IMG/VR virus record: IMGVR_UViG_3300044638_005715
Coordinates: 103,398-137,218 of that record
Source: a virus
Reading direction: 5' to 3' (one strand)
DNA: 33,821 bases
The first letter of the stretch is position 1; each line of letters opens with the position of its first letter. This document shows positions 18,327-26,266 of the stretch, one piece after another. A model generated the notes under the pieces. That model was not told where the DNA came from, did no database searches, and saw only the letters and a list, made by a program, of their open reading frames with translations. Position numbers and translations under genes: made by a program.

Positions 18327-18516
18327 AGCTTTCTTTCATTCGCCCATCTAATCTTTGATTTAGGGCCGCAATACTTTCATCCTTTTTGAGAGTATTCACG
18401 GCCAAAACATTATTGGTTAAAACGGCGGCTAAATTTCGCCCGCGTGGCACACCAACAACAACACGGTTGGTTTGAGGTTGTTCACTACCTGAACGAATTT
18501 TTTGTGCTACTGCCAT
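18316..18516 (-). CDS. Small protein in the connector operon
   Basis: A 66-residue basic protein, MAVAQKIRSGSEQ at the start and NQRLDGRMKESYAP at the end, with a central hydrophobic but not membrane-like stretch (LAAVLTNNVLAVNTL). It overlaps the genes on both sides by 11 and 10 nt, which argues that it is real and co-translated. No family is recognised. It may be a small head-tail adaptor component. Confidence 0.65.
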   Translation of the reverse strand: MAVAQKIRSGSEQPQTNRVVVGVPRGRNLAAVLTNNVLAVNTLKKDESIAALNQRLDGRMKESYAP

Positions 18517-19025
18517 CTTATTTCACCTTCTTCATCTAATATGTGGTAATTTTCTACTAAGTAACTTGATACATAATAGGGGCTAATAATTCCATAAAAA
18601 CTTTCAGAACTTTTATTTCTCTTATAATCATATTCAAGTGAAGCATATAAATCAGAGACTATTTTAGCTGCCGCCTGTAATTCCCGCCCCATCCCAGCTA
18701 AACTAATGGAAGAGGGGCCATCCTTAATAGAAACTGAACTGGCCGCCTTTGCTTTTATTTCACTATTTAATAATATCATGGAGGCTTTATAGGCCGTTAA
18801 TATATTAAATGCTTTATCGTTATTCATAAATGGATCTGGCGTGATTGTATTAGTAGCTATATTAATCGAATAATCAGTATCTAATGATACATCATAACTA
18901 ACTTGGTATGCCGCAATAGTTGCCAAAGATAATAAACGAGAATCGGAGTATTGCTGAACGGCCGCTTCACACGACATATCTCCAACAATACCCCTAATTA
19001 ATCTCAGTATATTAACTGCCCACAT
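18507..19025 (-). CDS. Head-tail connector-like helical protein
   Basis: I place the start at 19025 (MWAVNILRLIRGIVGD), giving 172 residues. Upstream in-frame ATGs at 19031 and 19064 are possible, the latter adding 13 residues, but only the 19025 start has a GGA at a usable distance. The middle DPFMNNDKAFNILTAYKAS, then ILLNSEIKAKAA, is helical and is followed by IKDGPSSISLAGMGRELQ and a helical C-terminus. This helix-rich DGPSSI-type pattern fits head-tail connector (adaptor) proteins. It lies at the start of the neck gene run. The start overlaps the end of the preceding gene. Confidence 0.75.
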   Translation of the reverse strand: MWAVNILRLIRGIVGDMSCEAAVQQYSDSRLLSLATIAAYQVSYDVSLDTDYSINIATNTITPDPFMNNDKAFNILTAYKASMILLNSEIKAKAASSVSIKDGPSSISLAGMGRELQAAAKIVSDLYASLEYDYKRNKSSESFYGIISPYYVSSYLVENYHILDEEGEIRWQ

Positions 19026-19341
19026 ATTCATATTCCAGATTTTTATTATCCTTATACACATCATAAATTGTATCGGATATTTCTTTTATGGAAAATGGGC
19101 CCGTATTATATCCATTTGACATCTGCTGCTTAATAAAGCTACGAAGCCGTATTTTAGCAAACCATGGACTTTTCTTGAGCCATTCTATAACATAGGGCAT
19201 AATTTGTGCTAATAAAGTAATTATTGCAACTAAAGTAGCTGGATCTATACCATATTTTCGATCGCCATTACTAATTTCATCGACATTATTCTTATTAACA
19301 TTAAATAGACGTTCGATGACTTTTATTTCCATTTCTTTCAT
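19012..19341 (-). CDS. Small single-span membrane protein
   Basis: A 109-residue protein. Residues 35-55 (ATLVAIITLLAQIMPYVIEW) form a credible membrane helix, followed by a positive patch (LKKSPWFAKIRLRSFIKQ) and a polar acidic C-terminus. The start at 19341 has AGGGG nine bases before. It follows the two-span membrane gene by 12 nt and overlaps the connector gene. A role in lysis or in membrane contact during infection is possible; the sequence does not decide. Confidence 0.75.
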   Translation of the reverse strand: MKEMEIKVIERLFNVNKNNVDEISNGDRKYGIDPATLVAIITLLAQIMPYVIEWLKKSPWFAKIRLRSFIKQQMSNGYNTGPFSIKEISDTIYDVYKDNKNLEYEYVGS

Positions 19342-19353
19342 TGGGTGCCCCTT

Positions 19354-19668
19354 TTAAAATTTATTCTTAACCCAGTCTATAATGGACAATCTTTTGCCAG
19401 GAATAGTTTCATCCTTTGAAATATCAACACTAATTTTATTAACATCCTCTGGTTTAACTACATTGGTGGGAGTTAACCAACGGCGTAAAAAATCTAAACC
19501 AAGTGTTAAAGCCAATGCTATAAGAGCATTAGTTGATCCGCCTATTGCTTCTAATTCTGGAATGACTGATTTTGCCACAAAATCCATAACAGCTACAAGG
19601 GCCGTTATAGCAGCTAAAGTAAGCCATTTTTTAATATCTAATTTATCTATCTGGCCGCTATTTGACAT
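19354..19668 (-). CDS. Two-span membrane protein, holin-like
   Basis: A 104-residue protein with two hydrophobic helices, about 14-36 (WLTLAAITALVAVMDFVAKS) and 46-62 (NALIALALTLGLDFLRRW). A short loop separates them and the C-terminal tail is charged (KDETIPGKRLSIIDWVKNKF). Size and topology fit class II-type holins. No endolysin or spanin gene is visible in the window, and the gene sits between fibre and connector genes rather than in a lysis cassette. The holin call is therefore only a likely one. The ribosome site is GGTGA before ATG. Confidence 0.75.
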   Translation of the reverse strand: MSNSGQIDKLDIKKWLTLAAITALVAVMDFVAKSVIPELEAIGGSTNALIALALTLGLDFLRRWLTPTNVVKPEDVNKISVDISKDETIPGKRLSIIDWVKNKF

Positions 19669-19708: not shown

Positions 19709-21769
19709 TTAATTACTCATAACAACATCAGATAAGATAGCCGATGGCTCATCTGGAACTAATATTGATATAACTTTAGTATCGTATATTTCAGATGATG
19801 ATATTTCTAATTTATATTCTGTATTTCTTAATAATACTAATTCAGCATATCCATTACTATCAGTTGTTGCATTTTGTATGGTATTAATATGAAGTGAGGC
19901 ATTATTTATTTCAAAACAATCAGATAGGCGTGCTATAATATTTGCACCATTAATTGGTAATATGCTTACAGTTCCCTGAGATTTTATAAATAGTTGTAAA
20001 ACACAAAGTTCATCCCCTAAATCTGGTACAACTAATTTTTGTAAATTAATAATTTGACTTAAATCTGCATTTGGCATATTTATAGTAATATCATTAACAG
20101 TTTGATATCCAGTAGGAGTAGTCACACGAACCGTATATGTTTCATTTCCATCAACATTAATACGGGCCACACCATTTTCATTTGTAAAGCCCTTAGCAGT
20201 TTTACCAACTATTGAGAACTGTACATTTTTAACGGCATTGCCATTATCAAGTGCAGTGAATGACAACTGATAGGGCCCGAAACCAGCTATATTTGGTTGA
20301 ACAACACGTAATGTTGCATACATAGTATAGGAACCATTTGTAAATTTATATCTAGCAGTACCCTCTTCTATTGGTCTATCTTGTGATGCATATGATAAGG
20401 CATAATAATATCGCGTACCCTCAGCCCGTAAATATGTTATATTGCCAGCTAAATTTACATATGGGCCGTTATCTATTGATACTTGTCCACTTATAACATC
20501 AGTGTTGTTTGGCCAACTGAATGTTAATGGCTTATCATCATCTAATGATCTTTCTGTAATATATGCTGGATTTGGTTGTAATGCTGTTAATACATTTTGT
20601 GGTAATAGAACTGCTGTTCCTATTGTATTATCAGTAGGGACTCCAACTGCTACTTGGTTAGCTGCTGGTACTATAAGTGTTCCTGTTCGATCACCAAATT
20701 GATAAACAATACCAAAACGAACATCAGAAGTTGCTGGACTTTGATTGCTGATTGAGGAATCAATAAGTGTTTTAGTAGATCCGTTTGGGGTGAGTCGGAA
20801 TTGTGCCGTCGTGTTAGCATTATTCTGTAAAAAAATTGCACCTGATACTGGAATCGCTCCATAAGTTCCAAAAATTAGATTTTTAATAAAAACTCTGGAC
20901 GCTTGATCCGCATTCGTGCTTTGATAGGCTACAGACTGTAAATTGTTACCTCCTGGTCCAAAATCATTTCCGATTGCATTTTCGATATAAATTTGAGTAG
21001 TTCCGCCAGTATTTCTAACAGCGGCTCTACTGCTTAAATTTCCGGCAATTGCATTTACAATGTTTACAGTACCAGACCCCAAAACTAATACGGGTACACC
21101 ATCTGCGGCCCCAGAAAACAAAGCTGTTTGTCCACCATAGGCGTTTGTTATATTAGTCGTACCGGAGCCACTATGAACGACACCATGTACGGTTCCACTT
21201 GTTGTGCCAATCCCATGATAAACGTTATTGACGTTTAAGACGCCGGGTCCAATATTATTAACAATTCCTACTGTAGTGATAAATAGTGCATTAGTTGCTG
21301 AGGTACTTCGTACATCTCTAGTTATGGTTGCAGTTCCAGTACCTTGTAAAAAAAATATGGAAGTAATACCAGTTCCAGACGACCATATAACATCACGACA
21401 TTCTACATTACCTGATCCGGTAATACTATAACATATAACACTATTACTAGGTGCGTTTATTATTAACGCATCCCTGAATGTTACTTTTCCAGATGTATGG
21501 GTAAATCGAAATGCTGTTGTACTGCTTCCATTTATCACAAAATCGCAATCTGTAAATGTTAGATTTCCACCTGCATTGTTTATTTCGGTTTGAGATATTA
21601 AGTAAGATCCTGTACTGGTTGCTTCAAAAGTAATACCAGTAACAGAAATGTTTAAATTGATCGTGAATGTTCCAGTTCGGACTATATCTCCTGGTTGTGG
21701 TTGAACGCCGCCAAAAGTAACGGCATAGTTGTTGTAATTTCCAGTTGCTACAGCGGTTACAATTGCCAT
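19709..21769 (-). CDS. Beta-helical tail fibre / receptor-binding protein, copy 2
   Basis: The product has 686 residues. The N-terminus (MAIVTAVATGNYNNYAVTFG, GVQPQPGDIV) resembles the start of the 654-residue fibre upstream, both with a P..GD turn. Residues ~60-370 are short Ser/Thr/Asn/Gly-rich strands (GGNLTFTDCDFVING, SGKVTFRDALIINAPSN) typical of a right-handed beta-helix. The C-terminal part has two Ig/carboxypeptidase-regulatory-like modules (GFTNENGVARINVDGNETY; ATTDSNGYAELVLLRNTEY). No catalytic motif is seen. It follows a helper-like gene by 3 nt, as the other fibre does. A role in host recognition or capsule contact is inferred. Confidence 0.85.
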   Translation of the reverse strand: MAIVTAVATGNYNNYAVTFGGVQPQPGDIVRTGTFTINLNISVTGITFEATSTGSYLISQTEINNAGGNLTFTDCDFVINGSSTTAFRFTHTSGKVTFRDALIINAPSNSVICYSITGSGNVECRDVIWSSGTGITSIFFLQGTGTATITRDVRSTSATNALFITTVGIVNNIGPGVLNVNNVYHGIGTTSGTVHGVVHSGSGTTNITNAYGGQTALFSGAADGVPVLVLGSGTVNIVNAIAGNLSSRAAVRNTGGTTQIYIENAIGNDFGPGGNNLQSVAYQSTNADQASRVFIKNLIFGTYGAIPVSGAIFLQNNANTTAQFRLTPNGSTKTLIDSSISNQSPATSDVRFGIVYQFGDRTGTLIVPAANQVAVGVPTDNTIGTAVLLPQNVLTALQPNPAYITERSLDDDKPLTFSWPNNTDVISGQVSIDNGPYVNLAGNITYLRAEGTRYYYALSYASQDRPIEEGTARYKFTNGSYTMYATLRVVQPNIAGFGPYQLSFTALDNGNAVKNVQFSIVGKTAKGFTNENGVARINVDGNETYTVRVTTPTGYQTVNDITINMPNADLSQIINLQKLVVPDLGDELCVLQLFIKSQGTVSILPINGANIIARLSDCFEINNASLHINTIQNATTDSNGYAELVLLRNTEYKLEISSSEIYDTKVISILVPDEPSAILSDVVMSN

Positions 21770-21772
21770 AAG

Positions 21773-22324
21773 TTAACTCCGCAGTTGATCGATCACTTCA
21801 TTCAGTGTTGGCGTTGGTTTATTATCTTGTTCTTGTTGATTAATCCACATAAGAGCCTTTTGATATAAACTAATCCAACTTTCACGCAATGTATTATATT
21901 GGTGCTTTCTCATTTCTCTCTCAATATCTATTTTATGCATTTCTCTTTGCATCTGAATACTTTCAATAGTAGGTTCAGGCATTCCTAGAACCTGCCATCT
22001 TTTTTGATGTATTATACAATAAGATAAAATAAAATTGGTTAATTCATCGGGCCATTTAGCAATTTGAGCTATTTGACGTATTTTTATTTGGGCGTGTTTA
22101 TCAGAGAGGTCTGTTCCTTCTGTTGAGGCCGCAATGAAAACAGCTTTAGCCTCAGAATCAGAGGCTGATACAGCATCAAGTGAATTTATAACTTTAGTCC
22201 TATATCCACTATCAGGAAATGCCTCTTCTATATTGCCGAATCTTAGCTTTTTACCAGTCTTTACAACTACATCTTCCTGCAAATACTGTAATATTTCTTC
22301 ATTACTTTGTTCCCAGTTAATCAT
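21773..22324 (-). CDS. Fibre-associated helper protein, copy 2
   Basis: I place the start at 22324 (MINWEQSNEEIL, 183 residues). A longer frame begins at 22381, but GGAGAA lies six bases before 22324 and the paralogue at 24304-24849 begins at the equivalent residue (MNINWSKSNEEIL). The two share TGK/NRL.F.., GYRT.VI.S.D, EAKAVFIAA, GTDLSDK and a helical C-terminus. The protein is soluble and helical in its second half. Each copy sits directly before a fibre gene, so an attachment or fibre-assembly role is plausible but not demonstrated. Confidence 0.85.
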   Translation of the reverse strand: MINWEQSNEEILQYLQEDVVVKTGKKLRFGNIEEAFPDSGYRTKVINSLDAVSASDSEAKAVFIAASTEGTDLSDKHAQIKIRQIAQIAKWPDELTNFILSYCIIHQKRWQVLGMPEPTIESIQMQREMHKIDIEREMRKHQYNTLRESWISLYQKALMWINQQEQDNKPTPTLNEVIDQLRS

Positions 22325-22337
22325 GACATTCTCCGTT

Positions 22338-24302
22338 TTAAAAAAATTCGCCCCTATCATTACTATTAAGTGCCAATACACCAGTTAATATCTGCTCTGA
22401 TGTTGATTGTAGTGCTAGTCCAGACTGAATGTTTCCAATTTGTGTTGATGATAATGATGCTTTTATTCTTCCACTTTCAAGTTCATCTGGTAGACGGTCA
22501 AGGATAGGTGTAAAGTCAACATCAATTTCGCCGATCCCCTCTAAGATAGAAGTGATTCCAGTTTCCAATGTTTCTTGTTCTGCTAACCCATCCCGAATTG
22601 CATCAATTGTTTCTTGATCCAATGAAGTTGGGATCGCTGAAATAGCTTCTAATATAGAATCGGAAGTTAATTCGACCAGTGATCCAACATCTTGAACACT
22701 TGCCTCAAGTGCTAACCCATTTTGAATTTCTGCAACCGAATGAACATGACTATCAGGACGAATAAATCCAATTTCACCGACAACAGGAATACCGCTTAAT
22801 GGTTTTTCAAGCACCACCACGCCGTACTCTGTTTCCTGGGTGTAGGTGATGATGGTGGAGTTCTCTCCTGCTAGGGTCCCTTCTTCGTCCATGTACAAGA
22901 CGCTGTTTTGGAATGATCCGTTTTCGAATCCGGTTAGATTAACAGAAAACGTTGTTGCTGTTGCAGTTACATCGTCTGTAATTTCGAATTCGATAACAGG
23001 GTTTGCTTGTCTTAATTTCTTTAATGTCCAAGCAAGACTATGGTTGGTGTCGTCGTAATCCCGAAGATCGGCTTCATGAACACCGTCAACTATGTCAGGA
23101 ATGTTTGCGGAAATTGCCGCTGCTAAGATTGCTGGATCAAGAATTAAACCGGTTCCGGTTTGTAAAAATCCGGTATATCCGTAAGTCACGCCGCCTGCAA
23201 CATTTTGCGTAGATGGGAGTGTTGGTGCATTTAATTGGAATGGTAGTATTTTCCCATTCAAACTGGAAGACGCTGTGTACACCATCGCATCTTGGGATGT
23301 TTGGTTTATGATTGTGTTGGTTGAAACTATGGTTGTATTACTTATTAGTATTCTTCCACTATTATTGATAGTAGTATTTGATAAATTGAATAAACAACCA
23401 TCAACATAAAATGTAGAAGTGGCTAATATAGAAATTGTCTGATTCTGGATGTTTAAAACTGAACTACTACCATTGCCCGCTATAAAAAACGCTGTAGAGT
23501 TAGTTGACTGATAGTTTCCTGTAAAATTAAAAGTACAAGACCCGGTACCTACCGAAAAAATTCTTTGTATAGAACCCGATATGTTTCCTGTATAGTTAAA
23601 AATGCCCGATCCCGAGGTAGCACTTATTAAAATACCAGCACCGCTTGTAGAAATATCTCCCACAAAGTTAACAGTAGAGACCGCTTGAAGCGAGATAAGA
23701 GTTTGCCCGCTTGATACATTGATTGAAGACGTACTACCGAGATTTGAATGATTCCAACTACTTCCGTTAGGGGAACTTCCGTTTAGACTCACTAACCGGA
23801 AACAGTTAGCACTTATTGTGAAATACCCAATTGTGTTAAGAATTGTAGCAGATCCAGAAACTGAGGCAATTTGTACTGATTGTGCGGCGTTATACAATTC
23901 ATTTTGTGGGTTACTGTCTTTTGCATAAAAATTAAGTGTTCCACCATTTAAATCAATTATTCTATTTCCGGCAGTAGTATTTGACGCGGTTATAGACCAC
24001 CGCCCAATAAAAGTAATAAGCATTCCAGCAATAACATTAGTGTTGCAAAGTTTATTACCAAGTAGATTGTTTGTGCCCGAAAGAAAAAATCCATTTGTGG
24101 CCGTAATCGTTCTTGTTGTTCCGCTGATCTCGAATCGACCACTTATAGTATCCCATGTAATACTTTCGGCTACAAAATCAATATCAAAAAGTAGTGTATG
24201 TCCTTTAATGATTAAGGTGTCACCTGCTTGCGGAATCTGAGCCGGACTCCAATTCGTAGAAGTTGTTAAGTTTACATTTCCGGTTGAAGTCAAAGTTGCC
24301 AT
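22338..24302 (-). CDS. Beta-helical tail fibre / receptor-binding protein, copy 1
   Basis: The product has 654 residues. The N-terminus (TNWSPAQIPQAGDTLIIKGH, then LLFDIDF) resembles a G8-type capping domain. Residues ~60-340 are strand repeats of a right-handed beta-helix (SSINVSSGQTLISLQAVSTV, GILISATSGSGIFNYTGNIS). A conserved-looking module follows (LDPAILAAAISANIPDIVDG, then VHEADLRDYDD). The C-terminal ~120 residues are helical, with repeated IQ.GLALE/Q motifs (EIQNGLALEAS, NIQSGLALQST). The nucleotide composition is GC-richer around 22800-23200 than in neighbours. It starts one nucleotide after the helper gene's stop. Receptor binding is inferred. Confidence 0.85.
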   Translation of the reverse strand: MATLTSTGNVNLTTSTNWSPAQIPQAGDTLIIKGHTLLFDIDFVAESITWDTISGRFEISGTTRTITATNGFFLSGTNNLLGNKLCNTNVIAGMLITFIGRWSITASNTTAGNRIIDLNGGTLNFYAKDSNPQNELYNAAQSVQIASVSGSATILNTIGYFTISANCFRLVSLNGSSPNGSSWNHSNLGSTSSINVSSGQTLISLQAVSTVNFVGDISTSGAGILISATSGSGIFNYTGNISGSIQRIFSVGTGSCTFNFTGNYQSTNSTAFFIAGNGSSSVLNIQNQTISILATSTFYVDGCLFNLSNTTINNSGRILISNTTIVSTNTIINQTSQDAMVYTASSSLNGKILPFQLNAPTLPSTQNVAGGVTYGYTGFLQTGTGLILDPAILAAAISANIPDIVDGVHEADLRDYDDTNHSLAWTLKKLRQANPVIEFEITDDVTATATTFSVNLTGFENGSFQNSVLYMDEEGTLAGENSTIITYTQETEYGVVVLEKPLSGIPVVGEIGFIRPDSHVHSVAEIQNGLALEASVQDVGSLVELTSDSILEAISAIPTSLDQETIDAIRDGLAEQETLETGITSILEGIGEIDVDFTPILDRLPDELESGRIKASLSSTQIGNIQSGLALQSTSEQILTGVLALNSNDRGEFF

Positions 24303-24303
24303 A

Positions 24304-24849
24304 TCAAACCCACAAGGTTGAAATTTCTTCTATTAAAGATTCTTCTTTCAGTTTTCCAGAACTTATCAGGTCAACAACTTGATTTGAGAACCGTTGCCAC
24401 TTATCTCGCAATTGTGATATGCGTTGAAATTCTTGGTTGGCGGAAATACTTACATTATGAGATTCTCTCATTTTTTGAATAGAGTCTAATGTTGGTTCTA
24501 CCAATTGCATAAATTTCCATCTGGGACCAGTCCACAAACAATATGATAAAACAAATTCAGTTAATTCATTTGGCCATTTTCCAGCTTCGGCAATATATTT
24601 AATTTGCATTTGTGCATACTTATCAGATAAATCAGTACCATCACTCGCAGCAGCAATAAATACTGCTTTTGCCTCAGCACTCACAGATGACATTAAATCA
24701 ACAGATTTTATAACTATGGTCCTATATCCCATATCTGGAAATCTTTTCTCCACATCATCAAATTTTAAACGATTACCAGTTTTAATATAGATAACTTCAT
24801 TTAATTCATTTAATATTTCTTCATTGGATTTAGACCAGTTAATGTTCAT
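24304..24849 (-). CDS. Fibre-associated helper protein, copy 1
   Basis: A 181-residue protein, paralogous to the one at 21773-22324. It opens MNINWSKSNEEILNELNE and contains YIKTGNRLKF, FPDMGYRTIVIKSVD, EAKAVFIAAASDGTDLSDKY and WPNELTEFVLSY, followed by coiled helix. A GGAGAA ribosome site lies before the ATG, and the gene overlaps the end of the small membrane gene by 11 nt. The stop is one nucleotide from the fibre start. No known domain is recognised. Confidence 0.85.
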   Translation of the reverse strand: MNINWSKSNEEILNELNEVIYIKTGNRLKFDDVEKRFPDMGYRTIVIKSVDLMSSVSAEAKAVFIAAASDGTDLSDKYAQMQIKYIAEAGKWPNELTEFVLSYCLWTGPRWKFMQLVEPTLDSIQKMRESHNVSISANQEFQRISQLRDKWQRFSNQVVDLISSGKLKEESLIEEISTLWV

Positions 24850-25069
24850 TATTTTTCTCCAATCTAGAAATTCTAAGCGAATTATAAGTATCTATAAATA
24901 ATGTGTCTTCCTTTAATTTTTGTAGATCCTTTTCTAATTTTAGCTGTTTTGATCGGCAGGAGAAATATGAAGAGACTAGCAAATATGCTATTATTGTAAT
25001 AACTATATACAGTAGGTATTCTAAATTATTATTATTGGCTATGAAATCATAATTATTCTGTGTTTTCAC
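24839..25069 (-). CDS. Small membrane protein with coiled-coil tail (GTG start)
   Basis: A 76-residue protein starting with GTG at 25069, preceded by a strong GGGGAGAGG ribosome site. Residues 16-37 (LEYLLYIVITIIAYLLVSSY) are a membrane helix; residues 40-70 are charged and helical (LEKDLQKLKEDTLFIDTYNS). The N-terminal part is short and polar. The topology resembles i-spanins or other accessory lysis proteins, but no partner is seen. It overlaps the 41-residue ORF at its start and the helper gene at its end. Confidence 0.7.
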   Translation of the reverse strand: MKTQNNYDFIANNNNLEYLLYIVITIIAYLLVSSYFSCRSKQLKLEKDLQKLKEDTLFIDTYNSLRISRLEKNNEH

Positions 25070-25261: not shown

Positions 25262-26266
25262 TTAGAATGAACCAGCTATAATTCGGCGACCGTCAAGAAC
25301 GGCGAAACCTAGTTCCATCCAACCGTAATAACCCTGACGTTGTGACCTATGTAGGACAGGATCAGCAAAAATTTCTAATGCTGAAACAACCGGCATAATG
25401 AAACTATCATTAGCTGAACGATCTAGTCCAACAACAAGCTCTACGTCGCCTAGCCCCAATGACCCACCGAGATCATCAAGGAAATAATTTTGGTACTGTT
25501 GACCATCACCAAATTCATATAGGTCTCGCAAATTAATCCCGAAAATTCGGGTAAGTGCTGGACCACCATCTGGTGCAGTATACATTTCTCGACGAGTTAC
25601 ATCATCAATTTGATCGACGTTCCAGTTCCGAATATCTTCTACCGCTTCTAGAGAGGTATAAATATCGGTTAGGCGACCGCGTGATGTAACACTGTTCCCG
25701 CCACTATTACGCAACATAACAGTCTTCATAAGAGAGATTAGTCGCTTAGTAAACTGACCCGCTGCTGCATCTACATCATATACAGAAATGTTTCGGTCAA
25801 CAGCGGCAGCCAATAGGGTGTGCCAACCGTCATCATTAATCTTGGCAACGAATGATGCTTCGAGAATTTCCATGGCCCGAGCAATAACATTCCAGTTAGC
25901 TTGCTTTGCATACTTCAATAGAAAGTCTATTGAACTAGTGATGCCATAATATGGAACACTAACATAATCACTTTCTACGGTTCGCTCTGGAATTCGTCCA
26001 TGTCCAGGATTAGTATATGCAACGTGCTCTAATTCAGTACCAGGAGCTAGAAGATCCAATGGAAATTCAGGCTGAGTACCGGGCTGAAGAGGCATTGCTT
26101 CATAAATATCGGTAACAATGTCACCAAACAATACACCCTTACGCAACGGTGTTTCTAATGCTTTTGCAATCTCTTGCTGTGCTTCTAAAGCTACCTCTCG
26201 ATTGCCATCGCCGGATTTACGGTATAAATCAAGAATTGCTTCATCTGGTTGTATTCTACGACTCAT
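25262..26266 (-). CDS. Major capsid protein (HK97 fold)
   Basis: A 334-residue protein with the helix-strand pattern of phage HK97-type capsids. Clear features are the N-terminal arm, the SVPYYGITSSIDFLLKYAKQ spine-helix region, EDIRNWNVDQIDDVTRREMY in the A domain and the strand-rich end (RQGYYGWMELGFAVLDGRRI). Its place after a protease/scaffold and a decoration gene is canonical. The ribosome site ACGGAG lies 9 nt before ATG. The third codon position is more GC-rich than in neighbours, which fits high expression. A strong terminator follows directly. It assembles the icosahedral prohead shell. Confidence 0.9.
   Translation of the reverse strand: MSRRIQPDEAILDLYRKSGDGNREVALEAQQEIAKALETPLRKGVLFGDIVTDIYEAMPLQPGTQPEFPLDLLAPGTELEHVAYTNPGHGRIPERTVESDYVSVPYYGITSSIDFLLKYAKQANWNVIARAMEILEASFVAKINDDGWHTLLAAAVDRNISVYDVDAAAGQFTKRLISLMKTVMLRNSGGNSVTSRGRLTDIYTSLEAVEDIRNWNVDQIDDVTRREMYTAPDGGPALTRIFGINLRDLYEFGDGQQYQNYFLDDLGGSLGLGDVELVVGLDRSANDSFIMPVVSALEIFADPVLHRSQRQGYYGWMELGFAVLDGRRIIAGSF

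What the first reader, a model, noticed from the sequence alone, without database searches (positions are those of the whole stretch)
19709..24849. Duplicated helper-plus-fibre cassette
The gene pair at 24849-22338 and the pair at 22324-19709 have the same order. The ~182-residue helpers are clear paralogues; the fibres share only the N-terminal pattern and a beta-helix plan. This looks like cassette duplication followed by fast divergence of the receptor-binding part, giving two host-recognition options. The conserved helper suggests that each fibre needs its own partner.
Basis: partly seen in the sequence, partly recalled or inferred. Interest (0 to 1): 0.62.

Follow-up and report, generated by a model that had tools for sequence, protein, structure and literature searches.

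The report
Swappable phage fibre with matched partner
An uncultured virus of bacteria carries two fibre genes, each preceded by a small partner gene, and comparison with unrelated phages shows that the end of the partner is exchanged together with the start of its fibre, suggesting that the two are matched to fit each other.

Summary
Observation confirmed: two tandem helper-fibre pairs, H1-F1 (24849-22338) and H2-F2 (22324-19709). The helpers are paralogues (51% over 149 aa). The fibres are not detectably similar directly, only through intermediates.

The in-place duplication and fast divergence story is only partly right. H1 is a recombinant. Its first ~135 residues are closest to H2 (54%), but its last 46 are 93% identical to the helper of a phage with different structural genes (L173). 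The matching DNA (~94%) continues into F1 to codon ~435. L165 versus L167/L168, in another lineage, shows the same junction: helper body 95% identical in DNA, tail 60%, exactly where the fibre start and beta-helix are replaced. In L175 the beta-helix is replaced, but helper tail and fibre N-terminus stay together.

All ten helper genes found lie directly before a fibre, but kin L083/L084 has one helper for two tandem fibres. The cassette sits in an accessory slot after the capsid gene that is empty in some kin. The helper matches no Pfam, PHROG or NCBIfam family and no solved fold.

Best reading: a fibre partner with a lineage-specific body and a fibre-specific tail, like a mirror image of Tfa tail-fibre chaperones. 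Physical contact and receptor binding are inferred.

The parts
24304..24849 (-). Helper 1 (H1), 181 aa: body residues 1-135 (paralogue of H2), tail residues 136-181 (shared with L173/L175 helpers)
   Evidence: AF2 model pLDDT 86.9
24304..24444 (-). Exchanged part of H1: codons ~136-181, 96% nt identity to L173 over codons 137-181, against 48-61% before
   Evidence: best single breakpoint codon 136, dlnL 44.7, 0/500 permutations
22338..24302 (-). Fibre 1 (F1), 654 aa; sub-threshold G8 domain at residues 18-131; beta-helix-like 1-344; mosaic with L173F (residues 1-~435) and L175F (residues 1-~25 and ~361-520)
21773..22324 (-). Helper 2 (H2), 183 aa; body homologous to H1, tail unrelated (17% to H1)
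19709..21769 (-). Fibre 2 (F2), 686 aa; homologous to L083/L165/L168 fibres; C-terminal CarboxypepD_reg domain (34.9 bits, cut-off 32.3) shared with L175F
24839..25069 (-). 76-aa single-TM, coiled-coil protein overlapping the start of H1; weak relative of the 74-aa TM protein overlapping the helper start in L173/L175; possible third cassette member (weak holin-like PHROG hit)
25262..26266 (-). Major capsid protein (context): upstream edge of the variable slot
   Evidence: PHROG 2522 E 0.001; 238 relatives in IMG/VR
18507..19064 (-). p185, conserved gene (context): downstream edge of the slot
19354..19668 (-). 104-aa hydrophobic protein after F2 (context; function unknown, holin-like by appearance only)
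   Evidence: sequence; no PHROG match

Best explanation
The locus holds two helper-fibre cassettes in an accessory slot between the major capsid gene and the next conserved virion gene (p185). Each fibre is a modular beta-helix-type surface protein, probably for attachment to host or habitat surfaces. Each helper is a small dedicated partner made of two parts: a conserved globular alpha-helical body (residues ~1-120), and a C-terminal tail (last ~45 residues) matched to the N-terminus of the fibre encoded immediately downstream. I think most likely that the tail binds or nucleates the fibre's N-terminal end while the body either docks onto a virion component (adaptor) or holds the trimer during folding (chaperone). 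When fibres are swapped between phages, the crossover falls in the helper gene at the body/tail junction, so the recipient keeps its own body and gains the donor's matched tail and fibre. Shown: paralogy of the helpers, conserved gene order across lineages, the junctions, and fibre mosaicism. Inferred: physical contact of tail and fibre N-terminus, adaptor or chaperone role, receptor binding by the beta-helix, placement on the virion.
For: All 10 helper genes in the records examined lie directly upstream of a fibre, with a 1-3 nt gap or 8-nt overlap, across this phage family (window, L083/L084) and at least two others whose records lack its capsid/terminase genes (L173/L175; L165-L168). H1 versus L173H: nt identity 56% before codon 136, 96% after. 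L165H versus L167H: 95% before codon 166, 60% after, while F nt identity is ~32-68% over most of residues 1-260 and returns to 92-100% after ~360. L167/L168 have identical helpers including tails, and their fibres share N-terminal residues 1-20 (92%) and the C-terminal part but not the beta-helix. L173/L175 have near-identical helpers and fibre residues 1-20 at 98% nt identity although the beta-helix differs (~42%). Profile comparison of the two helper subfamilies aligns only the body (columns 5-125, prob 96%, E 6e-9), not the tails. The AF2 model has a globular body, a long helix 121-163 and a tail helix, with the junction inside the long helix.
Against: Tail and fibre start are neighbouring DNA, so co-transfer could be linkage with no functional match; there are only two clear recombination comparisons. 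L083/L084 carries two fibres after one helper. L170 and L171 have F2-like fibres without a recognisable helper, so some such fibres manage without one. No complex was modelled. No proteomics shows that any of these proteins is in a virion. For the window's own junction an assembly chimera cannot be excluded without reads, though fibre DNA is ~5% different from L173 and the same kind of junction appears in independent contigs.
Confidence: 0.6

Rival explanations
1. One reading: the H-F cassette was duplicated in place and the fibre (receptor-binding part) then diverged quickly by mutation, giving two host options.
For: H1 and H2 bodies are closer to each other (54%) than to L173H (46-49%); same order and orientation.
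Against: Most of F1 and the H1 tail are ~94-97% identical in DNA to a phage with different structural genes, so exchange rather than divergence made F1. Body-only tree support is weak, with the H1/H2 grouping unresolved. F1 and F2 belong to different fibre subgroups, each with closer relatives elsewhere.
Confidence: 0.15
2. Linkage only: helper and fibre are neighbours that are inherited and exchanged together; the helper has an unrelated role, and the junction inside it is accidental.
For: Exchanged segments are contiguous DNA; a stretch conserved in all helpers at codons ~91-105 (KWPxELTxFxLSY, nt 76-80%) could serve as the crossover site.
Against: Two lineages whose helpers are only ~20% identical both have the junction 41-46 codons from the end of the helper rather than in the gene gap or upstream; the conserved stretch lies 30-45 codons before the H1/L173 junction; tail type and fibre N-terminal type stay together even when the fibre body is replaced.
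Confidence: 0.2
3. The fibre has inverted polarity: it is anchored by its conserved C-terminal part and displays the exchanged N-terminal beta-helix outward, with the helper as a tip chaperone or tip adhesin on the N-terminus.
For: In L165/L167/L168 the C-terminal ~200 residues are 92-100% identical in DNA over most of their length while N-terminus and beta-helix are replaced; the L165 fibre C-terminus carries a BppU_N domain above the Pfam cut-off (26.2 vs 23.1), a domain that anchors BppU in lactococcal baseplates (own knowledge).
Against: Most phage fibres are anchored by the N-terminus (PMC10408124); conserved C-terminal parts can instead be trimerisation domains; F1 and F2 have no BppU_N match.
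Confidence: 0.2

Closest known systems
Tail fibre assembly (Tfa) chaperones: phage Mu Tfa, Pam3 gp25 (PMC9608196)
   Same: Small two-domain protein encoded next to the fibre; one domain conserved, the other variable and matched to the fibre; in Pam3 the variable domain is shown to bind the fibre.
   Different: Tfa/gp25 is encoded downstream, its variable domain is N-terminal and binds the fibre's distal C-terminal part. Here the helper is upstream, its variable domain is C-terminal, and co-variation is with the fibre N-terminus. No sequence or fold match.
Alteromonas phage V22/A5 fibre-chaperone modules (PMC10579305)
   Same: Fibre plus cognate chaperone shared as a module between distantly related phages.
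   Different: Chaperone downstream, resembles intramolecular chaperone domains with beta-hairpin tentacles; the H1 model is almost all-alpha with a long helix and matched no solved structure.
Modular tailspikes/RBPs with conserved N-terminal anchor (PMC10408124)
   Same: Beta-helix body replaced between conserved flanks; horizontal transfer across genera.
   Different: There the N-terminal anchor stays with the phage genus. Here the fibre N-terminus is exchanged with the end of the upstream helper and the helper body stays.
Mu G-segment (invertible S-U / S'-U' sets)
   Same: Two alternative fibre-plus-helper sets in one phage.
   Different: No inverted repeats around the cassettes and no serine recombinase in the held record; both sets lie in the same orientation as the neighbouring virion genes.

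Membership tests
Tail fibre assembly (Tfa; Pfam PF02413, Caudo_TAP) | Sequence match to the Tfa family | tested here: not met
   H1/H2: no such hit in Pfam, PHROGs or NCBIfam
Tail fibre assembly (Tfa; Pfam PF02413, Caudo_TAP) | Fold similar to solved Tfa/IMC structures | tested here: not met
   Foldseek of the H1 model (pLDDT 86.9) against PDB: nothing with E <= 0.001, best E 3.1
Tail fibre assembly (Tfa; Pfam PF02413, Caudo_TAP) | Gene downstream of the fibre, acting on the fibre C-terminus | tested here: not met
   All helpers are upstream; co-variation is with the fibre N-terminus
Tail fibre assembly (Tfa; Pfam PF02413, Caudo_TAP) | Needed for folding or trimerisation of the fibre | not testable with these tools
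   Needs expression; no complex prediction available
Mobile fibre + cognate partner module (as in V22/A5) | Fibre and partner shared together by phages with different structural genes | tested here: met
   H-F pairs in L173, L175, L165-L168; MCP and TerL of this phage absent from those records (several records are fragments)
Phase-variable (invertible or DGR) fibre system | Inverted repeats plus serine invertase, or reverse transcriptase | tested here: not met
   the record may be incomplete
G8-domain protein (F1) | PF10162 match above gathering score | tested here: inconclusive
   20.6 bits vs cut-off 22.9
Beta-helix tailspike/fibre (F1) | Beta-helix fold | tested here: inconclusive
   Strand-rich model 1-344 at pLDDT ~75; best PDB hits are beta-helix tailspikes (HK620) at E 0.026, TM ~0.2
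CarboxypepD_reg domain (F2 C-terminus) | PF13620 match above gathering score | tested here: met
   34.9 bits vs cut-off 32.3

The most novel reading that the evidence does not exclude
A previously undescribed family of fibre partners: an orphan alpha-helical fold encoded upstream of the fibre, with a lineage-specific body and an interchangeable C-terminal tail that recognises the fibre's N-terminus. It would be a mirror image of Tfa, acting as a plug-in adaptor that lets unrelated phages exchange fibres while keeping their own docking body.
Probability: 0.35. Interest if true: 0.62.

Novelty: new variant of a known kind. Interest (0 to 1): 0.5.

Why it matters
How phages fit a foreign fibre to their own particle is an open practical question. 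A natural junction inside a helper gene, seen in two lineages with very different helpers, points to which part may have to match the fibre and which part may have to match the phage, and makes the question testable by binding assays. It also corrects a tempting story: paralogous neighbours with different fibres need not be a diverging duplicate, since here fibre 1 was exchanged with a different kind of phage.

Tried and rejected
Pattern scans for the helper alone found no relative in IMG/VR, GTDB genomes or GenBank phages (one search returned only the L173/L175 contigs again). Relatives came only through the fibres. 80 capsid relatives and 40 whole kin records have no helper by the two-sequence model (one search had no positive control in the same search). 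Phase inversion and diversity-generating retroelement rejected. L086's weak hit (E 1.9) is p185, not a helper. L170's 197-aa upstream protein may be a very distant helper (3.7 bits) but was not counted. The body-only tree does not resolve H1/H2 as sisters. The fold search with the F1 model was weak because the model is poor. One BFVD match for the helper fold is an unnamed uncultured phage protein (A0A6J5M3D3, E 6e-4), so no function could be taken from it.

Full report
OBSERVATION. The window is positions 103398-137218 of a 137,218-base IMG/VR virus record. Genes run on the minus strand in the order TerL (32318-30354), 683-aa protein, 480-aa protein, 154-aa protein, major capsid protein (26266-25262), 76-aa TM protein, H1, F1, H2, F2, two small hydrophobic proteins, p185 and downstream virion genes up to a 2989-aa tape measure protein. 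H1 and H2 are real paralogues: 51% over 149 aa, E 4e-58. H2 starts at ATG 22324, preceded by an ACGGAGA site. F1 and F2 have no direct significant similarity.

CONTEXT. The capsid protein has 238 relatives in IMG/VR. In them the stretch between capsid gene and p185/p171 is an accessory slot: 130 bases in L006, L009, L017 and L026, up to ~9.8 kb elsewhere, filled with unrelated fibres, collagen-like proteins, small beta proteins and sugar-modifying-type genes. The two cassettes fill this slot in the window. Among kin, only L083/L084 (TerL 65%, capsid 69% identical) carries a helper, in a longer slot. None of the other kin loci searched, including those with a complete slot, has one. The cassette is therefore optional cargo of this family.

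RELATIVES. The helper alone found nothing in viral, genome or phage collections. The fibres did. F1 relatives: L173 (86%), L174 (77% over the part held), L175 (51%). F2 relatives: L083/L084, L165-L169, L170, L171/L172. In L173 and L175 a helper 58-59% identical to H1 lies 1 nt before the fibre. In L165-L168 and L083/L084 a more distant helper (196-206 aa) overlaps the fibre start by 8 nt. An independent profile built from L165H, L167H and L083H recovers H2 at 1.9e-8 and H1 at 2.8e-4 among all ORFs of the loci. Profile-profile comparison aligns only the body, columns 5-125 (probability 96%, E 6e-9). The records of L165-L168 and L173-L175 contain neither the capsid protein nor the TerL of this family, though several are fragments. 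L173 has its own portal and capsid/protease genes shortly after the cassette.

MOSAICISM. H1 versus L173H: 53-61% nt identity over codons 1-120, 48% over 121-136, 96% over 137-181 (third positions 91%); best single breakpoint codon 136, dlnL 44.7, 0/500 permutations. H1 versus H2: 63-64% nt over codons 1-120, 40% over the tail. F1 versus L173F: mostly 92-100% from residue 1 to ~435, ~60% to ~560, then ~92% to 600. F1 versus L175F: 98% over residues 1-20, ~42% over 41-360, 95-100% over 381-520. So F1 is a mosaic. In a second lineage, L165H versus L167H is 95% identical up to codon 166 and 60% after. Their fibres are dissimilar over the N-terminus and most of the beta-helix, and mostly 92-100% identical after residue ~360. 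L167 and L168 have identical helpers, share the fibre N-terminus (92% over residues 1-20) and the C-terminal part, but differ in the beta-helix. L165 and L166 come from different metagenomes and are identical, so this pattern is not a single assembly accident.

INTERPRETATION. The helper tail and the fibre's first ~20-25 residues stay together, even when the fibre body is replaced (L173/L175, L167/L168), and change together when the fibre N-terminus changes (L165 versus L167/L168; H1-F1 versus H2-F2). The helper body stays with the phage lineage. The simplest functional reading is a partner whose tail matches the fibre N-terminus and whose body has a fibre-independent job: docking to the virion, or trimer scaffolding. 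The H1 model (pLDDT 86.9) shows a globular helical body, a long helix 121-163 and a short tail helix; the junction lies in the long helix. It matches nothing in the PDB and one unnamed viral model. Because tail and fibre start are adjacent in DNA, linkage alone remains a serious rival.

Helper paralogy and conserved order are right. Duplication followed by divergence is not the history of F1. Whether the helper body was duplicated in place is undecided: identities favour it (54% vs 46-49%), but the tree does not resolve it. 'Each fibre needs its own partner' is weakened by L083/L084, with two tandem F2-like fibres after one helper.

COMPARISON. Tfa-type chaperones (Mu Tfa, Pam3 gp25: PMC9608196) have a variable fibre-binding N-terminal domain, a conserved trimerising C-terminal domain, and act on the fibre's distal end. 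Alteromonas V22/A5 modules (PMC10579305) show fibre plus chaperone shared across distant phages. Classical tailspikes keep the N-terminal anchor and swap the C-terminal part (PMC10408124). The present cassette works like these but with mirrored order, and it is not a member of the Tfa family by sequence, fold or gene order.

LIMITS. Few independent junctions; no complexes modelled; virion location, receptor binding and expression are inferred; reads for the window are not available.

Noticed in passing
L008:16260-17642, L011:16743-18140, L027:14353-14877, L036:19547-20431, L038:12627-13004, L047:16554-16922, L059:15087-15506, L061:14332-14739, L070:13991-15382, L073:15823-16197, L076:13932-14453, L111:14-1114: In kin phages, several apparently unrelated accessory-slot proteins (122-465 aa) end in the same short C-terminal tag, about (S/N)PAFLLF(M/L/V)(D/E); 24 of 2905 ORFs of at least 100 aa match a regular expression for it. 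It could be a shared docking or assembly signal; the window lacks it.
   Followed up: partly
Kin slots, e.g. L081:15011-15319, L027:16043-16351, L061:17906-18232: A 102-108 aa protein (MA..E.HVNDIGT..) sits just before p185 in many kin; L081's gives a sub-threshold BppU_N match (20.9 vs 23.1 bits). The window has hydrophobic proteins of 104 and 109 aa there instead.
   Followed up: partly
L047:16945-20253, L061:14743-17844, L070:16217-19480, L073:16201-19305: Some kin slots hold runs of metabolic or surface-modifying-type genes (by eye: glycosyltransferase-, sulfotransferase-, polysaccharide-pyruvyl-transferase- and radical-SAM-like) among the fibre genes.
   Followed up: no
L006, L009, L017, L026 (capsid gene to p185, 130 bases): Natural empty versions of the accessory slot, showing that all its cargo, including the fibre cassettes, is dispensable in this family.
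   Followed up: yes
window 24839-25069; L173:595-819; L175:4240-4464: A 74-76 aa TM/coiled-coil protein overlaps the helper start in both phage types (32% over 56 aa, E 6e-6), so the mobile unit may have three genes.
   Followed up: partly
L175:1176-2868: A metalloprotease-like gene and a subtilisin-like gene lie upstream of the helper-fibre cassette in L175 (by eye).
   Followed up: no
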